This document shows, in pieces, positions 2,840 through 36,453 of a stretch of DNA of 36,453 nt (position 1 is the stretch's first letter; each line of letters begins with the position of its first letter). The notes below the pieces were generated by a model, which ran no database searches, had not been told where the DNA came from, and saw nothing but the letters and a program-made list of their open reading frames with translations. A program made the translations under genes and the position numbers. The stretch comes from Actinomycetes bacterium (GTDB lineage: Bacteria > Actinomycetota > Acidimicrobiia > Acidimicrobiales > JAJZXF01): the NCBI GenBank assembly GCA_021802485.1, contig JAJZXF010000013.1:5854-42306 (forward strand). The letters are read 5' to 3'.

Positions 2840-3680
2840 CCTCGTGGCAGTGACGCAAGGCATGGGAGGCATCAGCCCAGAAGACGGGCCAGACGAGGCT
2901 GGTAGCCAGGAGCCCATCCCAGGGACAAAACGTGACGCACTCATCTGGATGTTGGTAGCAGGTGTGGGCTTCATTGTTGGGGGTATCTTGAGCCAGGTTG
3001 GCGTAGTCGCGTGGGGACTTGCTAGCGGGGTTGGGAGCGCGAGCAGGCTTGCTCGGCTGGAGAGCTCAGCGATGCCGCCGGAGGGGTTGGTCTTGTGCAA
3101 CTTGGTTGGGTTGTGGGTCGGCCTAATCGGCGCGGCGCTTGTGGTCTCCAGGTTGCGTGGGACCCGCAGGTTTGCGAAGGACATGGGGCTTGCAATAAGG
3201 CTTTGGCCCGATGTGCCCTTGGGGCTTGTGGCTGGAGCGATGCTCCAGCTTGTGGTGATCCCGGTTCTCTACGTTCCGTTTATTCATCTCATTCCGAATC
3301 TCAAACATCAGTTCTCCCGTCCTGCAGAACGGCTTGGTGGAGCATCCCACGGCAATGGTGTGTTACTTCTGGCCCTGTTTGTAGCGGTCATCGCTCCGAT
3401 CGTGGAGGAGATCTTCTTCAGGGGAGTCTTGATGCGCTCCCTTGAAGGTCTGTCCAGATCTGCAGGAAGGTTCGTGTCATGGATGGTGCCTGTTGTTGGG
3501 TCAGCGTTGCTGTTCGGCCTTGCGCATTTTGAGCCACTCCAGTTCATGGGCCTTGTGGTGTTGGGACTCGTGCTTGCGATAATCGCTCGAAGGACCAGAA
3601 GGCTCGGTCTCGGGATCGTTGCCCACGCGGCCTTCAATGGGTTTGCGTTGTTCGAGTTTTTCCACGTTCATCTGGGCTGA
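2826..3680 (+). CDS. CPBP family intramembrane glutamic metalloprotease (Abi/Rce1-like)
   Basis: Polytopic membrane protein of up to 284 residues. The diagnostic Abi/CPBP motifs are present: VEEIFFRG (adjacent glutamates plus Arg) near residues 197-204 and FGLAHF, which supplies a histidine, near 229-234. Hydrophobic segments begin near residue 38 and recur to the C-terminus. Relatives process prenylated or peptide substrates, or take part in bacteriocin self-immunity; the substrate here cannot be predicted. The start is uncertain: GTG 2826 lies within a repeat, and GTG 2844 or ATG 2862 are in-frame alternatives that remove only a hydrophilic leader. No good ribosome binding site distinguishes them. 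It stands alone upstream of the GT-C-like gene, 164 bp away. Confidence 0.85.
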   Translation: MNRTSLVAVTQGMGGISPEDGPDEAGSQEPIPGTKRDALIWMLVAGVGFIVGGILSQVGVVAWGLASGVGSASRLARLESSAMPPEGLVLCNLVGLWVGLIGAALVVSRLRGTRRFAKDMGLAIRLWPDVPLGLVAGAMLQLVVIPVLYVPFIHLIPNLKHQFSRPAERLGGASHGNGVLLLALFVAVIAPIVEEIFFRGVLMRSLEGLSRSAGRFVSWMVPVVGSALLFGLAHFEPLQFMGLVVLGLVLAIIARRTRRLGLGIVAHAAFNGFALFEFFHVHLG

Positions 3681-3844
3681 TGTCGCTCGACGGTTACAAC
3701 GAGCCCACGAGTCCGGGCAACTGGTGCAGTCCCGTTCATGTTCATCGGACCCGCGCCCGTTCGCGAGCCAAGGTGCGCAAGTATCGTGTGGAATGCGATG
3801 GTCGTTGATCGCTCGCCGGTTTGGTGAGGTGTAAGGCTGGAATA

Positions 3845-6175
3845 ATGAAGGCTCGCCTGCGAAAGCGCTACGGTCGTGTGCTAACGGCGTTTAGGCAGCC
3901 CAGCCGGGCGGGGGTGGTCTCGATAATCACGGTTGGAGCAGCCACGGCGATCGTCCTATGGCAGCTGCACCCGTCGCTGCTTCTAGCGAATACCACAGCG
4001 ACCGGAGGCGACACAGGTGCCCATGTGGCGCTTCCCGCGTACATGAAGGCACATCTGCTCAATCACCTGCGCCTTACGGGTTGGAGCCCAGAGTGGTTCG
4101 CGGGATTTCCGGTCTTTACGTTCTATTTCCCGCTGCCGAGTCTCATGATAGCTCTGGTGAGCTACCTGATCCCGTACAACATTGCATTCAAGCTTGTGAC
4201 TGTGCTTGGGTCGCTCACCCTCCCGCTCGCCGCTTGGGCGTTCGGGAGGCTTTTCGGAGCACGGCGGCCGGTGCCTGAGTGCCTGGCGGTTGCGACCCTT
4301 CCGTTCTTGTTCGACCAGACGTACCAGATATTGGGGGGGAACATAGCTTCGACCCTCGCAGGCGAGTATGCGTTCTCACTCTCGCTCTCCATTGCCTTTG
4401 TTTTTCTCGGACTTGTATCGCGGGGCATGCAGACCGGGCGCCACCGAGCTAGTGCGGCCTTGCTCCTTGCACTGTGTGTTCTCGCGCACGTCGTGCCAGC
4501 GTTCTACGCCGCCGCTGGGGCAGTTGTGATTACTCTTATGAGCCCCTCCTGGCGCCGGTTGCGCTGGTCGGTGACTGTCGGGATGACAAGCCTCGCGCTC
4601 GTCGCGTTCTGGATGCTTCCGTTCGTCGCAGAGATCCGTTACACGTCGAACATGGGTTGGGTGAACGTCACGAACTATGTTCACCGGCTATTTCCCGAGT
4701 ACAGGTGGTGGGTCCTCGTGCTTGCTGTTATCGGAGCGCTAGGGGCCGTCGTCTGGAAGGAGAAGGTTGGGATTTTCCTGGCGATCATGGCTGGAATCTC
4801 CGTTCTCGGGTTTCGCTTCGCGCCCCAGAGCAAGCTTTACAACGCGAGGCTCTTGCCGTTTTGGGTCGTCTCGGAGTACCTCCTGGCCGGTTTCGGGTTC
4901 GCCTTCCTCGCCACATCTTGTATCCAGCTATGGCGTCGATCTTCTCGCGGTGTCGCTGGCGAGAGCCGATCCGGTTCCGGGACTGAAGGCAATGTGCTGC
5001 CATCAGGTGCGAAAAGGGCTGTGCCGGGTGCGGTTTCCGTGCCGCTGGCTGCGCTGGTGTTAGGGTGTGCGGCTGTCCTGGTGCCGCTTACGGTCGGGAT
5101 GCCTGCGTCCCTGCTTACCCGCAATCAAGGCGTGTTGGCCCCTGCAAAGAGCTATGTGAGCTCCTGGGTCAACTGGAATTACACCGGATATCAGGGCAAG
5201 CCCGCCTATCGCGAGTACAGCTCGCTCATGCGAACGATGGCGAGGCTGGGAAAGCGCTACGGGTGCGGGCGGGCTATGTGGGAGTACTCGAGTTCACTCA
5301 ACAGGTTCGGTACCACCGAAGCGCTCATGCTGCTCCCCTACTGGACCCACGGATGCATCGATTCAATGGAAGGTCTGTTGTTCGAGTCCTCGGCCACCAC
5401 CCCCTATCACTTCATCAATCAGGCGCAGCTGTCTGCGCATCCCGACTATGCGATGGTGGGTCTTCCCTACCCGCCGCTACAGGTCACTCAAGGGGTAGAG
5501 CATCTGCAGATGCTCGGCGTTCGCTACTTCATGGCATCCTCGAAGGTTGTCCGTGCTGCCGCGGCGAGGGATCCCGCACTTACGCTCGTTGCAAAGAGCG
5601 GTCCATGGCGATACCCGCCGGGTTCCTATGGGGGTACTTATACATGGGACATCTACCTGGTGCATGATTCGAGCACGGTCGTCGGACTCCACACCCAGCC
5701 AGTCGTTGCACGTGGGGTCGCGGTGGGAGGCAGGGCTTGGCAGCAGGCATCTTTGTCGTGGTATGACGACCCAGCGAGGTGGAGCGTGCTGATGGCCGCA
5801 AGCGGACCAAGCTCCTGGCCGAGGGTCTCGCGGAGCGACGCCCATCCTCCGGTGCGATCTGTGCGGTATGCACAGGTGAGCCACATAGTCACTTCGAGTG
5901 ACACCATACGGTTCCATGTGAACGTCACGGGTACCCCCGTGCTGGTGAAGACCTCCTACTTTCCCAATTGGCAGGCATCGGGCGCACGTGGGCCATGGCG
6001 CGTCATGCCGAACCTGATGGTAGTGATCCCGACGAGTCGTTCGGTTGTCCTGCATTACGGTTACACTCCGGTAGACCTTGTCGGGAGTGCGATCACCTTG
6101 ATCGGGCTGGCCTGTACTGCCTGGATTGCTCGCCGCCGCAGCTACGGGTTCGGGGGTGAACCGGATGTGGGATGA
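3845..6175 (+). CDS. GT-C-like polytopic membrane protein (PTPS-related membrane domain type)
   Basis: About 776 residues with many transmembrane segments in the first two thirds, then a large soluble extracytoplasmic part and a final C-terminal TM before a basic tail. After TM1 (about 24-40) comes a GGDTGAH motif (D56, H60) and a WFAGFPVFTFYFPLP segment. This resembles the acidic first-loop motif of GT-C lipid-linked glycosyltransferases and of the 6-pyruvoyl-tetrahydropterin-synthase-related membrane family. It probably transfers a sugar from a polyprenyl-phosphate donor outside the membrane. The phosphomannomutase overlaps its stop, which fits mannose-based glycan synthesis. I chose ATG 3845 over the upstream in-frame TTG 3821 because ATG is the stronger start codon; neither has an ideal ribosome binding site. 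The exact substrate is unknown. Confidence 0.75.
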   Translation: MKARLRKRYGRVLTAFRQPSRAGVVSIITVGAATAIVLWQLHPSLLLANTTATGGDTGAHVALPAYMKAHLLNHLRLTGWSPEWFAGFPVFTFYFPLPSLMIALVSYLIPYNIAFKLVTVLGSLTLPLAAWAFGRLFGARRPVPECLAVATLPFLFDQTYQILGGNIASTLAGEYAFSLSLSIAFVFLGLVSRGMQTGRHRASAALLLALCVLAHVVPAFYAAAGAVVITLMSPSWRRLRWSVTVGMTSLALVAFWMLPFVAEIRYTSNMGWVNVTNYVHRLFPEYRWWVLVLAVIGALGAVVWKEKVGIFLAIMAGISVLGFRFAPQSKLYNARLLPFWVVSEYLLAGFGFAFLATSCIQLWRRSSRGVAGESRSGSGTEGNVLPSGAKRAVPGAVSVPLAALVLGCAAVLVPLTVGMPASLLTRNQGVLAPAKSYVSSWVNWNYTGYQGKPAYREYSSLMRTMARLGKRYGCGRAMWEYSSSLNRFGTTEALMLLPYWTHGCIDSMEGLLFESSATTPYHFINQAQLSAHPDYAMVGLPYPPLQVTQGVEHLQMLGVRYFMASSKVVRAAAARDPALTLVAKSGPWRYPPGSYGGTYTWDIYLVHDSSTVVGLHTQPVVARGVAVGGRAWQQASLSWYDDPARWSVLMAASGPSSWPRVSRSDAHPPVRSVRYAQVSHIVTSSDTIRFHVNVTGTPVLVKTSYFPNWQASGARGPWRVMPNLMVVIPTSRSVVLHYGYTPVDLVGSAITLIGLACTAWIARRRSYGFGGEPDVG

Positions 6176-7677
6176 GGCCGGACGGGCACGAGTACCGGGT
6201 TGCCACTAGGCTGCCGAGTGCGATGAAGTCGTTCGAGGCTGTGTTCAAGGCATACGATGTCCGCGGTGTCGTACCAGCTGAGCTGGACGCTGACATGTGC
6301 CGCGCTATCGGCGTCGCGTTTGCGCGTTTCTGTGGATCGAAGCGGGTGATTGTCGCGCGAGATGCGCGTGCTTCCGGAGTGGAGCTGGCCGCTGCGTTCA
6401 TGGATGGCGTTCTTTCGGAGTGCGTTGAGATTGCAGACCTTGGTCTCGCGTCGACGGACATGCTCTATTTCGCGTCAGGCAAGCTTGACCTGCCAGCGGT
6501 GATGTTCACGGCATCACACAATCCCGGTCGCTACAACGGCATGAAGTTCTGTCTCGCAGGGGCACGTCCTATTGGCGTCGAGACTGGCCTGATGGATATC
6601 CGCTCGATAGCGGAGGCGGCCTACGACGCCGCGGCCGCGAGGGCCGACTCCAACCCGATCTCCGGCCGGGAGGTCCGTGACGCCACAGCTGCTGGCGCAC
6701 CAGAGGCAAGCGGACCATCAGGCGCGAAAGGTGTCGCACGTGCAGCGAAAGTCGACCTGCTTCAGGATTTCGCGGAGCATGTGCGTTCGTTCGTGGACCT
6801 CTCCGTCCTGCGCCCACTTAAGGTTGTCGCTGATGTTGCCAACGGGATGGGTGGTCTGGTCGTGCCGCGGGTTTTCGAGGAGCTACCGTTTGACCTGCAT
6901 ATTCTGTACCCGGAGCTTGACGGGACATTCCCCAATCACCCGGCAGATCCGATCCAGCCCGAGAACCTCGAAGATCTGAAGGCGGAAGTATTGTCGCGGG
7001 AAGCGGACGTGGGTCTTGCTTTCGATGGCGACGCGGACAGGGTGTTTCTGGTGGATGAAAAGGCGGAGGGCGTCTCGGGCTCGCTGACCACAGCGCTCGT
7101 TGCCAAGGCGATGCTCGCGAAACAGCCAGGCTCCACAATCCTTCACAACCTCATCTGTTCAAAGGTGGTCCCAGAGGTGATCGCCGAGAATGGCGGCACT
7201 GCGGTGCGGACCCGAGTGGGCCATTCATTCATCAAGGGGATCATGGCATCGACTGATGCAGTGTTCGGAGGAGAGCACTCCGGGCATTATTACTTTCGCG
7301 ATAACTTCAGAGCGGACTCGGGGCTCATCGCGGCGTTGCTGGTTCTGGAGGTGATGTCCGTCGCGGGCAAGCCACTTTCGGAACTCGTGTCGGAGTTCCG
7401 CCGCTATGCAAGCTCGGGGGAGATCAACTTCACTGTCGCGGACCCCGCGTCAGCGGTTGAGTCCGCTGCTGCGCTGTATGCTTCGAGCGGTGCGGACGTA
7501 GATCTAATGGACGGGCTGACAGTGGTGATGGGCAACTGGTGGTTCAACCTGCGCCCGTCCAACACAGAGCCGCTGCTGCGGCTGAATGTCGAGGCGCCGA
7601 CGGAGGAAGAGTGCTTGCGCAGGGTGGGCGAGGTGCGCTCCAGCCTGGAAGATGCAAAGCTTCTCGGGAACAAATAG
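6172..7677 (+). CDS. manB: Phosphomannomutase/phosphoglucomutase
   Basis: Alpha-D-phosphohexomutase interconverting hexose 6- and 1-phosphate, which feeds GDP-mannose. It has 501 residues. Visible motifs are the phosphoserine loop TASHNP (113-118, S115), the metal loop DGDADR (285-290), the sugar-specificity loop GEHSG (367-371) and the phosphate-binding RPSNTEP (461-467). A Gly/Ala-rich low-complexity insert at about 160-192 separates domains 1 and 2 and is unlike the compact E. coli-type enzyme. The ATG overlaps the preceding stop (ATGA), indicating translational coupling; a later in-frame ATG at residue 18 lies closer to the conserved KAYDVRG start and could be the true N-terminus. Phosphomannomutase versus phosphoglucomutase preference cannot be read from sequence; the SIS isomerase downstream favours mannose use. 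Confidence 0.93.
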   Translation: MRPDGHEYRVATRLPSAMKSFEAVFKAYDVRGVVPAELDADMCRAIGVAFARFCGSKRVIVARDARASGVELAAAFMDGVLSECVEIADLGLASTDMLYFASGKLDLPAVMFTASHNPGRYNGMKFCLAGARPIGVETGLMDIRSIAEAAYDAAAARADSNPISGREVRDATAAGAPEASGPSGAKGVARAAKVDLLQDFAEHVRSFVDLSVLRPLKVVADVANGMGGLVVPRVFEELPFDLHILYPELDGTFPNHPADPIQPENLEDLKAEVLSREADVGLAFDGDADRVFLVDEKAEGVSGSLTTALVAKAMLAKQPGSTILHNLICSKVVPEVIAENGGTAVRTRVGHSFIKGIMASTDAVFGGEHSGHYYFRDNFRADSGLIAALLVLEVMSVAGKPLSELVSEFRRYASSGEINFTVADPASAVESAAALYASSGADVDLMDGLTVVMGNWWFNLRPSNTEPLLRLNVEAPTEEECLRRVGEVRSSLEDAKLLGNK

Positions 7678-7871
7678 CGCGATATCTGCAACTGTCTCTT
7701 GCGCTTGTGAATATCGCCTGGTGTTCCTAGCGAGGTCCGCTGGAACAGGGTCGAAGGTGGAAGAGAACGCGAAACCGATGAGGACAATGACGATGAGGAC
7801 AACACAAGACCTAATTGGAGTCGACATGGGCTGCTTGAGGAGGCTTTGCGCTCTGGGAGGTGCGAGCTGAG

Positions 7872-8117
7872 ATGTCACTGGATCCCCTGTTGCTTGAGAT
7901 ACTCGCCTGCCCGCAGGACAAGGGACCGCTTTATTACTTTCCCGACGGGGAGTTTCTTTACAACCCCCGGCTTCGGCGTCGCTACCTGGTTCGAGATGGC
8001 ATACCGGTGATGCTCGTGGACGAAGCAGAGAACGTTGATGCCTCTGAGCACGAACGGCTGATGCAGGAGGTGTCCGCCAAGAACCTGCGCCCTACCTTCG
8101 ATCAGGGGTCGCGGTGA
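7872..8117 (+). CDS. Trm112-like small protein (UPF0434 type)
   Basis: About 81 residues with the family pattern LLEILACPxxKGPL, then YNPRLRRRYLVRDGIPVML. In Trm112 proteins CPxC pairs bind zinc; here the first pair reads CPQD, so one cysteine is lost, as I recall for actinobacterial members. The exact role is unknown; related proteins activate methyltransferases. I chose ATG 7872 because GGGAGG (7855-7860) lies 11 nt upstream, whereas the in-frame GTG at 7860 would overlap that site. The stop overlaps the next gene's GTG (GTGA). It sits between phosphomannomutase and the SIS isomerase, matching the actinobacterial manB cluster. Confidence 0.85.
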   Translation: MSLDPLLLEILACPQDKGPLYYFPDGEFLYNPRLRRRYLVRDGIPVMLVDEAENVDASEHERLMQEVSAKNLRPTFDQGSR

Positions 8118-33995: not shown

Positions 33996-34634
33996 TCAGA
34001 GGACGCTCGCGCTCTCCGAGCCGCTGTTTCGACCGGTGAGGTTCAGGAGTAGGGAGGCTGCGTTCGGACGCCGAGCAGCAAGAGCGCCAGCCAGCTCGCA
34101 GCAGGCGGCGATCGCTGGTGCAAGTGCTGCTGGCAGCGCCAGGTCGAGGGATCGAGTGAGATCCAGGCTGTGGACGGTCAGCTCAAAGGTCCGGGTTGGC
34201 AGGTATGCGGCTAGCGCCATCGCTCCAGCTGGCGTGGCGACGAGTGTCTCGTCAGGGCTTGCATCGACGAGGCCGAGCACCCGCTGGGCCAGGTCACGTA
34301 CCGCCTTGGCGGGGTCGTCGCCTAGATCAGCGCCCGCCTGGCGACCACGCTCGGCGATTGCCGTGTCTTGTCGCCTACGCTCCTCGGCGTCGGCACCGTC
34401 GCCGAGGACGGAGAGGAAGTACTCGACGGGGCCGCTGAGCACGGGGCCACTGGTGGGCTGGGCGAAGTAGGTCTCGATAGTGGAAAGCGCGCGCGTCGTG
34501 TGGCCGACCAGGGACCGGATGTCCCAGACGCCGAGACCGGGAAGCGCCCACTGGTCGTTTCGAACCTGGCCGACCAGGTCGACGAACACCCCAGCTGCAG
34601 CCCGGAAACAGCGACGACTCTCGTTGGTGCTCAC
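33996..34634 (-). CDS. Mycothiol-dependent maleylpyruvate isomerase family protein (DinB-like fold)
   Basis: About 212 residues from GTG 34634 (STNESRR start). The N-terminal four-helix part carries WDIRSLVGHTTRAL with the metal-binding-type His, then AETxF-like and DPAKAVRDLA helices. Later come TRTFELTVHSLDLTRSL (second His) and the C-terminal ELAGALAARRPNAASLLLNLTGR, typical of the actinobacterial maleylpyruvate isomerase/DinB_2 families. Members use mycothiol in isomerisation or conjugation; the substrate is unknown. The frame extends upstream to 34697, but those residues do not resemble the family. The gene stands alone. Confidence 0.8.
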   Translation of the reverse strand: MSTNESRRCFRAAAGVFVDLVGQVRNDQWALPGLGVWDIRSLVGHTTRALSTIETYFAQPTSGPVLSGPVEYFLSVLGDGADAEERRRQDTAIAERGRQAGADLGDDPAKAVRDLAQRVLGLVDASPDETLVATPAGAMALAAYLPTRTFELTVHSLDLTRSLDLALPAALAPAIAACCELAGALAARRPNAASLLLNLTGRNSGSESASVL

Positions 34635-34673
34635 ATCACGGGTTATAGTCGTAATATGAGAGGTTAGTAAGAC

Positions 34674-35017
34674 ATGGACGCCTTTGAGGGGAGCCAAGGC
34701 GACGACCTACCGGGTTGGCCCTCCCGCAACAAGCTCACCCAGGGAAACACCATCAACCATGTCACGAGCCTCGAGCCCTACCAGGACAAGCAACGCATCT
34801 GGGTGCTGAAGCCGATCGCGGAGTCGCTCGAAAACCAGATCACCGACGCCGCCGTCGCGGATCTGGTCCGCTTCCCAAACCACCCCGATCCCGGAGGAGA
34901 GTCGTCCTTCACGTCCTCGACACCACGGCCCTATTGGCCACCGAACTCCAAGACCGCATCCCAGATGTCAGTTATCCACAGGAATTCGGAGGATCGATTA
35001 TGGGCTCATACCAGTAA
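34674..35017 (+). pseudogene. Possible frameshifted gene remnant of unknown family
   Basis: The first frame from ATG 34674 reads naturally up to about 34895 (segments LEPYQDKQRIWVLKPIAES and ITDAAVADLVRFPNHPDPGG). After that the neighbouring frame looks more protein-like (VVLHVLDTTALLATELQDRI, then YPQEFGGSIMGSYQ) up to a TAA at 35015-35017. One indel near 34895-34905 would join them into about 114 residues. I do not recognise the family. This could be an eroded end of a larger mobile-element gene or a chance pair of open frames. Confidence 0.3.
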
Positions 35018-35195
35018 GCCGAGTACTTGGCCGAGCAACGCAGCGACAGTTCCGTCGTAGAGCTCGTGCATAGACCTCGCGCACGGTGCCGGTCTCGGTG
35101 CGGATGCAAGGGGGCTTGAGTGAGCGCGGTGGTCTCGAGATGGATGCGAAAGAGCACGAGCTGAGCCAATGCACCAGTGCGCTCAAAGGAGCAGG

Positions 35196-35273
35196 ATGTC
35201 GAAGGATACGTTTGCGATTTACGCGACGAAGGACAGCCGGGCTTACGTGTGCCGAGAATGCGAAAGGAGGTAA
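35196..35273 (+). CDS. 25-codon small ORF with strong ribosome binding site
   Basis: ATG 35196 follows AAAGGAG (35185-35191) by 4 nt and ends at TAA 35271-35273. The product begins MSKDTFAIYATKDSRAY and ends VCRECERR, with a CxxC pair. Its stop overlaps the ribosome binding site of the next small ORF. No family is recognised; it may be a real peptide, a leader or the broken start of a longer gene. Confidence 0.3.
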   Translation: MSKDTFAIYATKDSRAYVCRECERR

Positions 35274-35277
35274 CGAC

Positions 35278-35421
35278 GTGGAAACGTCGTTACCAACAAA
35301 GCAATGCTGTACAAGAGATAGAGGAAGGAGCGGAATGTCCGCTCCCTGGCCCTCTGGGATCAGCTCTGCGAGAGTGATCTCAAACCACTACAAGAGGCGT
35401 GTATCACGAAAGCTATGTTGA
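35278..35421 (+). CDS. 47-codon small ORF behind a near-perfect Shine-Dalgarno
   Basis: GTG 35278 follows AAAGGAGGT (35263-35271), a nine-base match to the 16S anti-Shine-Dalgarno, at standard spacing. The start codon lies in the perfect hairpin 35269-35294. The product (METSLPTKQCCTRDRGRSG...) has no recognisable motif and another perfect hairpin (35327-35345) lies inside it. The translation signal is excellent but the protein looks non-descript. Confidence 0.25.
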   Translation: METSLPTKQCCTRDRGRSGMSAPWPSGISSARVISNHYKRRVSRKLC

Positions 35422-35449
35422 GCTAGCCGGTGGAGGTCCGGTCACGGTA

Positions 35450-35629
35450 ATGACCAAGCAGCCGTGTAGCTGGTGGGCGGCGTCAGGGGAGATCCTGACG
35501 CCGAAGCCCCACGACAAAGTCGCCTTGGCCTCCAAGCAAGCCTGCGGTGCCTACGATGAGGAATCCTGCGTAAGCGTCGTCATAGTGCCCGCGAAAGCGG
35601 GGAAGAACGGGAGCCGAGCCCCTGTCTGA
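35450..35629 (+). CDS. 59-codon small ORF, third of a series
   Basis: ATG 35450 follows GGAGGT (35432-35437) but is itself within the hairpin GGTCA/TGACC (35440-35455). The product starts MTKQPCSWWAASGEILTPKP and contains several cysteines (CSWW, ACGAYDEESC). No family is recognised. The hairpin GGCGTCAGG/CCTGACGCC (35479-35502) lies inside it, so the region may be structured RNA rather than coding. Confidence 0.25.
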   Translation: MTKQPCSWWAASGEILTPKPHDKVALASKQACGAYDEESCVSVVIVPAKAGKNGSRAPV

Positions 35630-35699
35630 TGCCTGCAGGCGGTGGCACCGCTCACGCGAACGCCAACGAGTCCGCGAAGCTCGCTACCACGAAAACGTG

Positions 35700-36079
35700 A
35701 TCCCAGCCGCCGCGTAAGGGTTTTCCTCGAAAAGAGCTGCACCCCGTCTTCGTATAGTCGGCGACAGTGATGTTTCCGGCGTTGGGATTGATCCACGAAC
35801 AGCGCTCGATGTCAGCACAAGTTCATGCGTGGAAGATATCGGCGTCGCGCTTGGTGAGTTCGATACGTCGTTGAGGCGGTGTACCAAACGCCGTCGACTC
35901 GCCAGTGCGCTTGGTGGTTGCCGGACGGCAACTTGCACACGCTGCCCCATGCGTTACGCTTTCGCCCTTCAGCCACAAGAACCAGGTTATCGCTGTTCCA
36001 CGATAGGTTCCGGCAATTAAACTCGAACTTGCAACATCAGAACAGATCGGACAATCTATGCTCCGACCTACTACTTCTC
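35700..36079. other. Region with no gene identified
   Basis: These 380 bp contain only short frames in several phases without motifs or good ribosome binding sites. I see nothing that can be named. Confidence 0.5.
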
Positions 36080-36124
36080 TGGAGCGGGCGACGAGAATCG
36101 AACTCGGGCCCTCAGCTTGGGAAG
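36080..36124 (-). other. 3' half of tRNA-Gly (CCC), probable integration (att) site
   Basis: On the minus strand these bases read CTTCCCAAG (anticodon loop with CCC), a variable region, then GAGTTCGATTCTCG (T-arm) and CGCCCGCTCCA (acceptor 3' strand plus discriminator and CCA). No matching 5' half (expected GCGGGCG and a D-arm) occurs within about 100 nt upstream, so this is not a complete tRNA gene. Isolated 3' tRNA ends are typical of attL/attR sites left by tyrosine-recombinase elements. The intact gene should lie outside the window. Confidence 0.65.
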
Positions 36125-36259
36125 CGTGGAACCCGGGCTACGGTGACCAGCCGGGATACACATTTTCCCCGGTTAGAGGCCTTGTTTGCTTGATCGTGCG
36201 AGCCCACTCTTGACCATGCTTAGCCGTCCAATGTGGCACTACTGTTGCACGCTGCTGTA

Positions 36260-36284
36260 CGGACAGTGTCCGGGGAGATATAAT
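36260..36284 (+). promoter_or_regulatory. Promoter with operator-like palindrome
   Basis: TATAAT (36279-36284) is a consensus -10 box. The perfect palindrome CGGACA-G-TGTCCG (36260-36272) covers the spacer and the expected -35 side, as an operator would. The expected transcription start (about 36291) coincides with GTG 36292, consistent with a leaderless message. Confidence 0.55.
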
Positions 36285-36291
36285 CACCCTC

Positions 36292-36342
36292 GTGAAAACG
36301 ACCACCGCGCAGCCCCGCCGGCATCGCCTAGGAGACCGCTGA
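36292..36342 (+). CDS. 16-codon possible leaderless leader peptide
   Basis: GTG 36292 to TGA 36340-36342 encodes a short basic peptide (MKTTTAQPRRHRLGDR). It begins where the upstream promoter should start transcription. It may be a leader peptide or simply chance. Confidence 0.2.
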   Translation: MKTTTAQPRRHRLGDR

Positions 36343-36393
36343 TTTAGTCGCCTCTGGATTCGCGATTCTTTTCCGGGCGTGCGAGAATTGGCC

Positions 36394-36453
36394 ATGGCAC
36401 TCGGTCGTTCGAATGTTCAGCCCCGCTTCGATGATCCCCGGAGCCTGCTCGGG
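36394..36453 (+). CDS. Possible 5' end of a gene running off the right edge
   Basis: ATG 36394 opens a frame with no stop to the end of the window (20 codons, MALGRSNVQPRFDDPRSLLG). It is in the same frame as the small ORF at 36292 and downstream of the promoter at 36279. No ribosome binding site is obvious and the product cannot be identified from this length. Confidence 0.3.
   Translation, partial: MALGRSNVQPRFDDPRSLLG

What the first reader, a model, noticed from the sequence alone, without database searches (positions are those of the whole stretch)
35196..35700. Hairpin-rich stretch with three short ORFs and very strong ribosome binding sites
Eight inverted repeats, two with GNRA loops, coincide with three consecutive small ORFs. 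The second has a nine-base anti-SD match and its start codon is inside an 11-bp hairpin. This could be a structured ncRNA (for example a group II intron or other ribozyme remnant), or a translationally coupled leader system controlled by the hairpins. It is the least explained part of the window and lies next to the att site.
Basis: partly seen in the sequence, partly recalled or inferred. Interest (0 to 1): 0.7.

Follow-up and report, generated by a model that had tools for sequence, protein, structure and literature searches.

The report
Decayed nested group II introns
The hairpins are the broken front ends of two self-splicing mobile introns, one inserted inside the other, left in a scrap-heap of mobile DNA beside an old integration site; the small 'genes' are by-products of the folded RNA, so this is largely ordinary genome debris.

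Summary
The hairpin-rich stretch is real and can be explained. It is the decayed 5' part of two nested group II introns. Window 35247-35398 is the start of domain I of an RF01999-type (D1D4-2) intron. At 35399 an RF02003-type (D1D4-4) intron begins (Rfam 73.1 bits, E=2.5e-14). It runs to about 35622, where it is cut off and joined to the 3' end of an ISKra4-family insertion sequence. No domain V/VI and no reverse transcriptase remain, so it should neither splice nor move.

Both parts show covariation in 24-27 relatives. The ORFs are not genes: the second stops after 4 codons in a 99%-identical copy in the same genome and in relative G480; the third stops after 16 codons in G096. The SD-like tract and hairpin belong to intron domain I. 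Relatives include an uninterrupted outer-type intron (G480) and other nested introns (G096, G575, a Streptomyces plasmid). The host is an Acidimicrobiales-like actinobacterium.

Bacterial twintrons, ORF-less introns and truncated copies are all described already, so this is a new, degraded example of a known kind. Interest is low. The mildly notable point is that group II introns repeatedly invade one another in this order.

The parts
35197..35246 (+).
   Evidence: Sequence; no known relative of the peptide. The C71 copy has a different flank.
35247..35398 (+). 5' fragment (domain I) of the outer, RF01999-type group II intron, starting GTGTG
   Evidence: 82% identical to the first 152 nt of the complete G480 intron, which matches RF01999 and has D5-D6; 99% identical to C71 over 121 nt; alignment with 26 others; covariation.
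35263..35271 (+). AAAGGAGGT, the SD-like purine tract; part of intron domain I
   Evidence: conserved purine tract in relatives without an ORF behind it.
35269..35294 (+). 11-bp hairpin with GNRA (GGAA) loop holding the GTG of ORF 2
   Evidence: counterpart with a GCGA loop in G480. Not well conserved across the whole family (48-54% of cells paired).
35320..35381 (+). Two adjoining domain I stems, 35320-35324/35351-35355 and 35356-35362/35375-35381, with an inserted 8-bp hairpin at 35327-35345
   Evidence: 99% and 87% of cells paired in 27 sequences with many two-sided changes.
35278..35421 (+).
   Evidence: VETS* in C71, VRTS* in G480.
35399..35622 (+). 5' fragment of the inner, RF02003-type group II intron, starting GTGTATCACG
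   Evidence: 78% identical to the G096 inner intron over 35399-35620; first 12 bases identical to its 5' end.
35424..35559 (+). Rfam RF02003 group-II-D1D4-4 match, full model
   Evidence: 73.1 bits, E=2.5e-14; covariation score 0.477 against 0.193 shuffled.
35399..35629 (+).
   Evidence: Stop after 16 codons in G096.
35623..35627 (+). Junction between intron homology and insertion-sequence homology (deletion scar)
   Evidence: Intron homology ends about 35620-35622 and C55 homology begins at 35628.
35628..35745 (+). 3' remnant of an ISKra4-family insertion sequence (transposase C-terminus and right end)
   Evidence: 95% identical to C55; the C55 peptide matches ISKra4-family transposases.
36073..36125 (-). 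Duplicate of the 3' part of tRNA-Gly(CCC), a probable att half-site
   Evidence: 89% identical to C130:6843-6896, which lies in an intact tRNA-Gly(CCC).

Best explanation
A dead, nested pair of group II introns. An RF01999-type intron (a self-splicing RNA that spreads by reverse splicing) inserted after 35246. Later an RF02003-type intron inserted into its domain I after 35398, forming a twintron. A deletion then fused the inner intron at about 35622 to the 3' end of an ISKra4-family insertion sequence, removing the inner D4-D6, the rest of the outer intron and any intron-encoded protein. What is left still folds locally but lacks catalytic domain V, so it should neither splice nor move. Hairpins, GNRA loops and the SD-like tract are domain I parts, and the ORFs are incidental. 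Shown: homology, boundaries, covariation, missing parts, non-conserved ORFs. Inferred: insertion by reverse splicing, order of events, present inactivity.
For: RF02003 match over the full model. Outer fragment 82% identical to the start of the complete G480 intron, which is uninterrupted at that point and carries RF01999 and D5-D6. Inner fragment 78% identical to the G096 inner intron from its first base. Other complete RF01999-type introns continue past the junction. Covariation in both parts. Same kind of nesting in G096, G575 and a Streptomyces plasmid. No D5-D6 nearby at E<=10. ISKra4 remnant directly behind. ORFs broken in relatives.
Against: The outer 3' half is missing, so the twintron is inferred from one junction. 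The inner 5' end reads GTGTA, not the GUGYG consensus (G096 is the same). Exon-binding pairing could not be placed consistently. The assembly is fragmented: C71 ends inside the shared repeat, so the upstream flank could be misjoined.
Confidence: 0.87

Rival explanations
1. A chimeric intron fragment rather than a twintron: the 5' end of an RF01999-type intron was joined to an RF02003-type intron by DNA recombination or deletion, not by reverse splicing of one into the other.
For: No outer 3' half is present. G575 likewise has an outer 5' fragment followed by a complete intron and no detected outer remainder.
Against: The junction falls exactly at the 5' terminus of the inner intron, as expected for insertion. 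G096 and the Streptomyces plasmid show nesting with intron sequence on both sides.
Confidence: 0.1
2. A translationally coupled leader system of small ORFs controlled by hairpins.
For: AAAGGAGGT before a GTG inside a hairpin, with open frames in this copy.
Against: Frames broken in a 99%-identical copy and in relatives; the structure is fully accounted for by intron families.
Confidence: 0.02
3. A working piece of a split, trans-splicing or circularly permuted group II intron whose D5-D6 lie elsewhere.
For: Circularly permuted introns with D5-D6 upstream of D1 are known in bacteria (PMC8637638). Weak D5-like matches exist on other contigs of this genome.
Against: No D5-D6 upstream or downstream in 34600-36453. 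The inner intron is cut before its 3' part by IS DNA and the outer domain I is interrupted.
Confidence: 0.01

Closest known systems
Bacterial group II twintrons (Trichodesmium erythraeum, Thermosynechococcus elongatus; also Methanosarcina in archaea)
   Same: One group II intron inserted inside another, outside housekeeping genes (PMC4649490; PMC4424553).
   Different: Both introns here are only 5' fragments. The outer 3' half, D5-D6 and any encoded protein are gone, so no splicing is expected. The two belong to different Rfam D1-D4 families.
Truncated bacterial group II introns
   Same: Fragment of the ribozyme without catalytic domain or RT, among other mobile DNA; the review says most bacterial copies are truncated or inactivated (PMC4424553).
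   Different: Two fragments of different types directly abutting, with the junction at an intron 5' terminus.
ORF-less group II introns
   Same: The closest complete relative of the outer part, the G480 intron, is about 700 nt long with D1-D4 and D5-D6 and no room for an RT gene.
   Different: The window copy is not complete.
ISKra4-family insertion sequences
   Same: Transposase C-terminus and right end at 35628-35745.
   Different: Only about 118 bp are left.

Membership tests
Group II intron, RF02003 type (inner part) | Match to the D1-D4 covariance model above the curated score | tested here: met
   73.1 bits against 49, full model; covariation score 0.477 against 0.193 shuffled.
Group II intron, RF02003 type (inner part) | 5' terminus GUGYG | tested here: inconclusive
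   GTGTA in the window and in G096; GTGTG or GTGCG in others.
Group II intron, RF01999 type (outer part) | Match to the RF01999 model | tested here: not met
   No RF01999 match in the window or genome; expected if the inner intron interrupts it. The complete homologue G480 does match. Filed as a fragment derived from this type, not as a member.
Group II intron, RF01999 type (outer part) | 5' terminus GUGYG at a boundary of repeated sequence | tested here: met
   GTGTG at 35247, where identity with the C71 copy begins.
Intact group II intron | Domain V and VI | tested here: not met
   None in 34600-36453 at E<=10.
Intact mobile group II intron | Intron-encoded reverse transcriptase/maturase | tested here: not met
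   The only RVT_1 match in the genome is on C68, next to an RF02005-type ribozyme.
Group II twintron | Inner intron flanked on both sides by the outer intron | tested here: inconclusive
   5' side present; the 3' side is deleted, with IS DNA in its place.
Group II twintron | Sequential splicing | not testable with these tools
   Needs RNA.
Leader-peptide system | Reading frame conserved among homologues | tested here: not met
   Stops in C71, G480 and G096.

The most novel reading that the evidence does not exclude
In Acidimicrobiales and some Streptomyces, group II introns (often ORF-less) repeatedly home into other group II introns and form twintrons that can persist and spread as units; the window is a dead example that combines two different intron types.
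Probability: 0.3. Interest if true: 0.5.

Novelty: new member of a known kind. Interest (0 to 1): 0.25.

Why it matters
It adds a decayed nested-intron example from a little-studied actinobacterial order and shows that intron-in-intron insertion recurs there. Surveys that start from domain V or the reverse transcriptase would miss such 5' fragments; one published pipeline states that it could not detect the outer intron of a twintron (PMC8919778).

Tried and rejected
Scans of viral and genome contigs with exact domain I patterns found nothing. Plasmid and phage searches gave only partial matches. A search for exon-binding (EBS1-IBS1) pairing gave no consistent position across relatives, so target recognition is left open. 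A circularly permuted intron was rejected because no D5-D6 lies nearby. A leader-peptide system was rejected because the frames are broken in relatives. A weak tmRNA match at 36090-36137 (11.8 bits against 47) is the tRNA-Gly half-site, not a tmRNA, and a mir-680 match (16.7 bits against 104) is chance. The 5' flank peptide has no known relative, and the 5' flank DNA has no clear homologue in 148 relatives apart from a 201-bp repeat in the same genome.

Full report
Observation. The hairpins and the SD-like site are present. Inverted repeats at 35269-35294, 35327-35345 and 35478-35503 have perfect arms. The region 35247-35635 folds better than all 100 shuffles, z=-4.2. AAAGGAGGT at 35263-35271 occurs once in the window, 0.10 expected. 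The three ORFs exist mechanically.

First identification. Rfam gives one match in the whole 36-kb window: RF02003, group-II-D1D4-4, at 35424-35559 on the plus strand, over the full model, 73.1 bits against a cut-off of 49. No domain V-VI is found in 34600-36453 even at E<=10.

Boundaries and copies. The end of contig C71 of the same genome holds a 121-base stretch 99% identical to window 35246-35366 but with a different upstream flank. The shared part begins with GTGTG, the group II 5' consensus, at 35247. Window 35628-35745 is 95% identical to part of contig C55. The peptide encoded there matches ISKra4-family transposase C-termini, and the shared sequence ends at the same place...CTGCACCCC, in both copies. 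The structured unit is therefore 35247 to about 35622, and what follows is insertion-sequence debris.

Two introns, not one. Genome G480, of the same order, has a complete intron of about 700 nt with no room for a reverse-transcriptase gene. Its first 152 nt are 82% identical to window 35247-35398. It matches RF01999 (group-II-D1D4-2) and has D5-D6. Window and G480 align as far as CAAACCACTACAAGAGGC and then part. In an alignment of 27 sequences (RF01999-type introns of the order and the two copies of this genome) the outer pattern continues past this point in the other complete members. In the window the next bases are GTGTATCACGAA, identical to the 5' end of the inner intron of G096, and identity to that intron is 78% over 35399-35620. 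Other RF02003 introns begin GTGCGTCC at the same distance upstream of the RF02003 core. The junction therefore sits at an intron 5' terminus inside another intron's domain I, as insertion of one group II intron into another would leave it.

Covariation. With the RF02003 structure on 24 relatives, 81.9% of cells pair and 21 of 27 pairs show two-sided changes; the covariation score is 0.477 against 0.193 for shuffles and at most 0.172 with slid partners. For the outer fragment the score is 0.311 against 0.154 shuffled and at most 0.153 slid. There the stems 35320-35324/35351-35355 and 35356-35362/35375-35381 are 99% and 87% paired. The 11-bp hairpin that holds the GTG is variable across the family, and one further measure (number of pair types) was not above shuffles. 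Relatedness inflates these scores, so they support the Rfam match rather than stand alone.

The ORFs. The second ORF reads VETS* in C71 and VRTS* in G480. The third stops after 16 codons in G096. In most RF01999-type introns of the order a purine tract is followed by a hairpin loop reading ATGTAG or CGTAG. The apparent ribosome binding site is thus part of the intron RNA.

Context and host. Genes in the window (SecA, PrfB, FtsX, methylmalonyl-CoA mutase) are chromosomal. The closest named FtsX relatives are uncultured Actinomycetes and Acidimicrobiales assemblies, the best at 83%. Beyond the insertion-sequence remnant lies a duplicate of the 3' part of tRNA-Gly(CCC) at 36073-36125. A short frame on the minus strand at 35812-35976 resembles an integrase N-terminus by eye only; Pfam did not support it. 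The place is a mobile-element scrap-heap beside an old integration site.

Recurrence. G096 has an RF02003-type outer intron with a second one inside it and D5-D6 behind. The Streptomyces sp. NBC_01136 plasmid has the same arrangement plus an intron-encoded protein. In G575 a 181-nt fragment of a G480-type intron (92% identical) is followed directly by the GTGTG of another complete intron with D5-D6. Contig C39 of the window's own genome has an RF02003 5' end abutting an intron-like fragment. Of 58 loci surveyed in the order, G096 and G575 show direct nesting or abutment clearly.

Relation to the literature. A review states that most bacterial group II intron copies are truncated or inactivated, that ORF-less introns are rare in bacteria, and that several bacterial twintrons are known, outside housekeeping genes (PMC4424553). 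Twintrons of Trichodesmium and Thermosynechococcus are described (PMC4649490). The finding is a new decayed example of a known kind. A library search for group II introns, Actinobacteria and twintrons found no paper on the subject, but that library is partial.

Caveats. The genome is a 152-contig assembly. C71 ends inside the shared repeat, 75 identical bases after the only mismatch (read), so the assembler may have joined the wrong upstream flank to the intron. The intron-intron and intron-IS junctions lie beyond that repeat. Insertion by reverse splicing, the order of events and present inactivity are inferred, not shown.

Noticed in passing
L030 (NZ_CP108633.1 715015-725216), about 4500-8100: Streptomyces plasmid twintron: two RF02003 cores, three D5-like matches and a split intron-encoded protein; the DNA just upstream of the outer intron reads like a reverse-transcriptase motif (GTPQGSPLSPVLANLFMHYA), so this intron may itself sit inside another intron's protein gene.
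   Followed up: partly
L197 (G575:C8), 933-1790: A 181-nt 5' fragment of a G480-type intron directly followed by a complete RF01999-type intron; no outer remainder found.
   Followed up: partly
L167-L196, about 20-40 nt from the intron 5' ends: RF01999-type introns of the order carry an SD-like purine tract followed by ATGTAG or CGTAG, that is, a start codon directly followed by a stop; probably a structural loop of domain I, but striking.
   Followed up: partly
L011 (C152), about 3050-3815: Another RF02003-type intron in the same genome with a D5-D6-like end about 530 nt further on (36.2 bits, under the 40-bit cut-off) and no RT gene: a decayed ORF-less copy.
   Followed up: partly
L016 (C68), 1-1294: The genome's only RVT_1 match lies at a contig end next to an RF02005-type ribozyme (197.8 bits), so a third intron type is present, possibly intact.
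   Followed up: no
window 35812-35976 (-): Short frame resembling, by eye only, the N-terminus of a tyrosine integrase next to the tRNA half-site; Pfam gave no support.
   Followed up: partly
window 34816-35016: 201 bp are 93% identical to G000:C76:2435-2635, another repeated fragment in this debris region.
   Followed up: no
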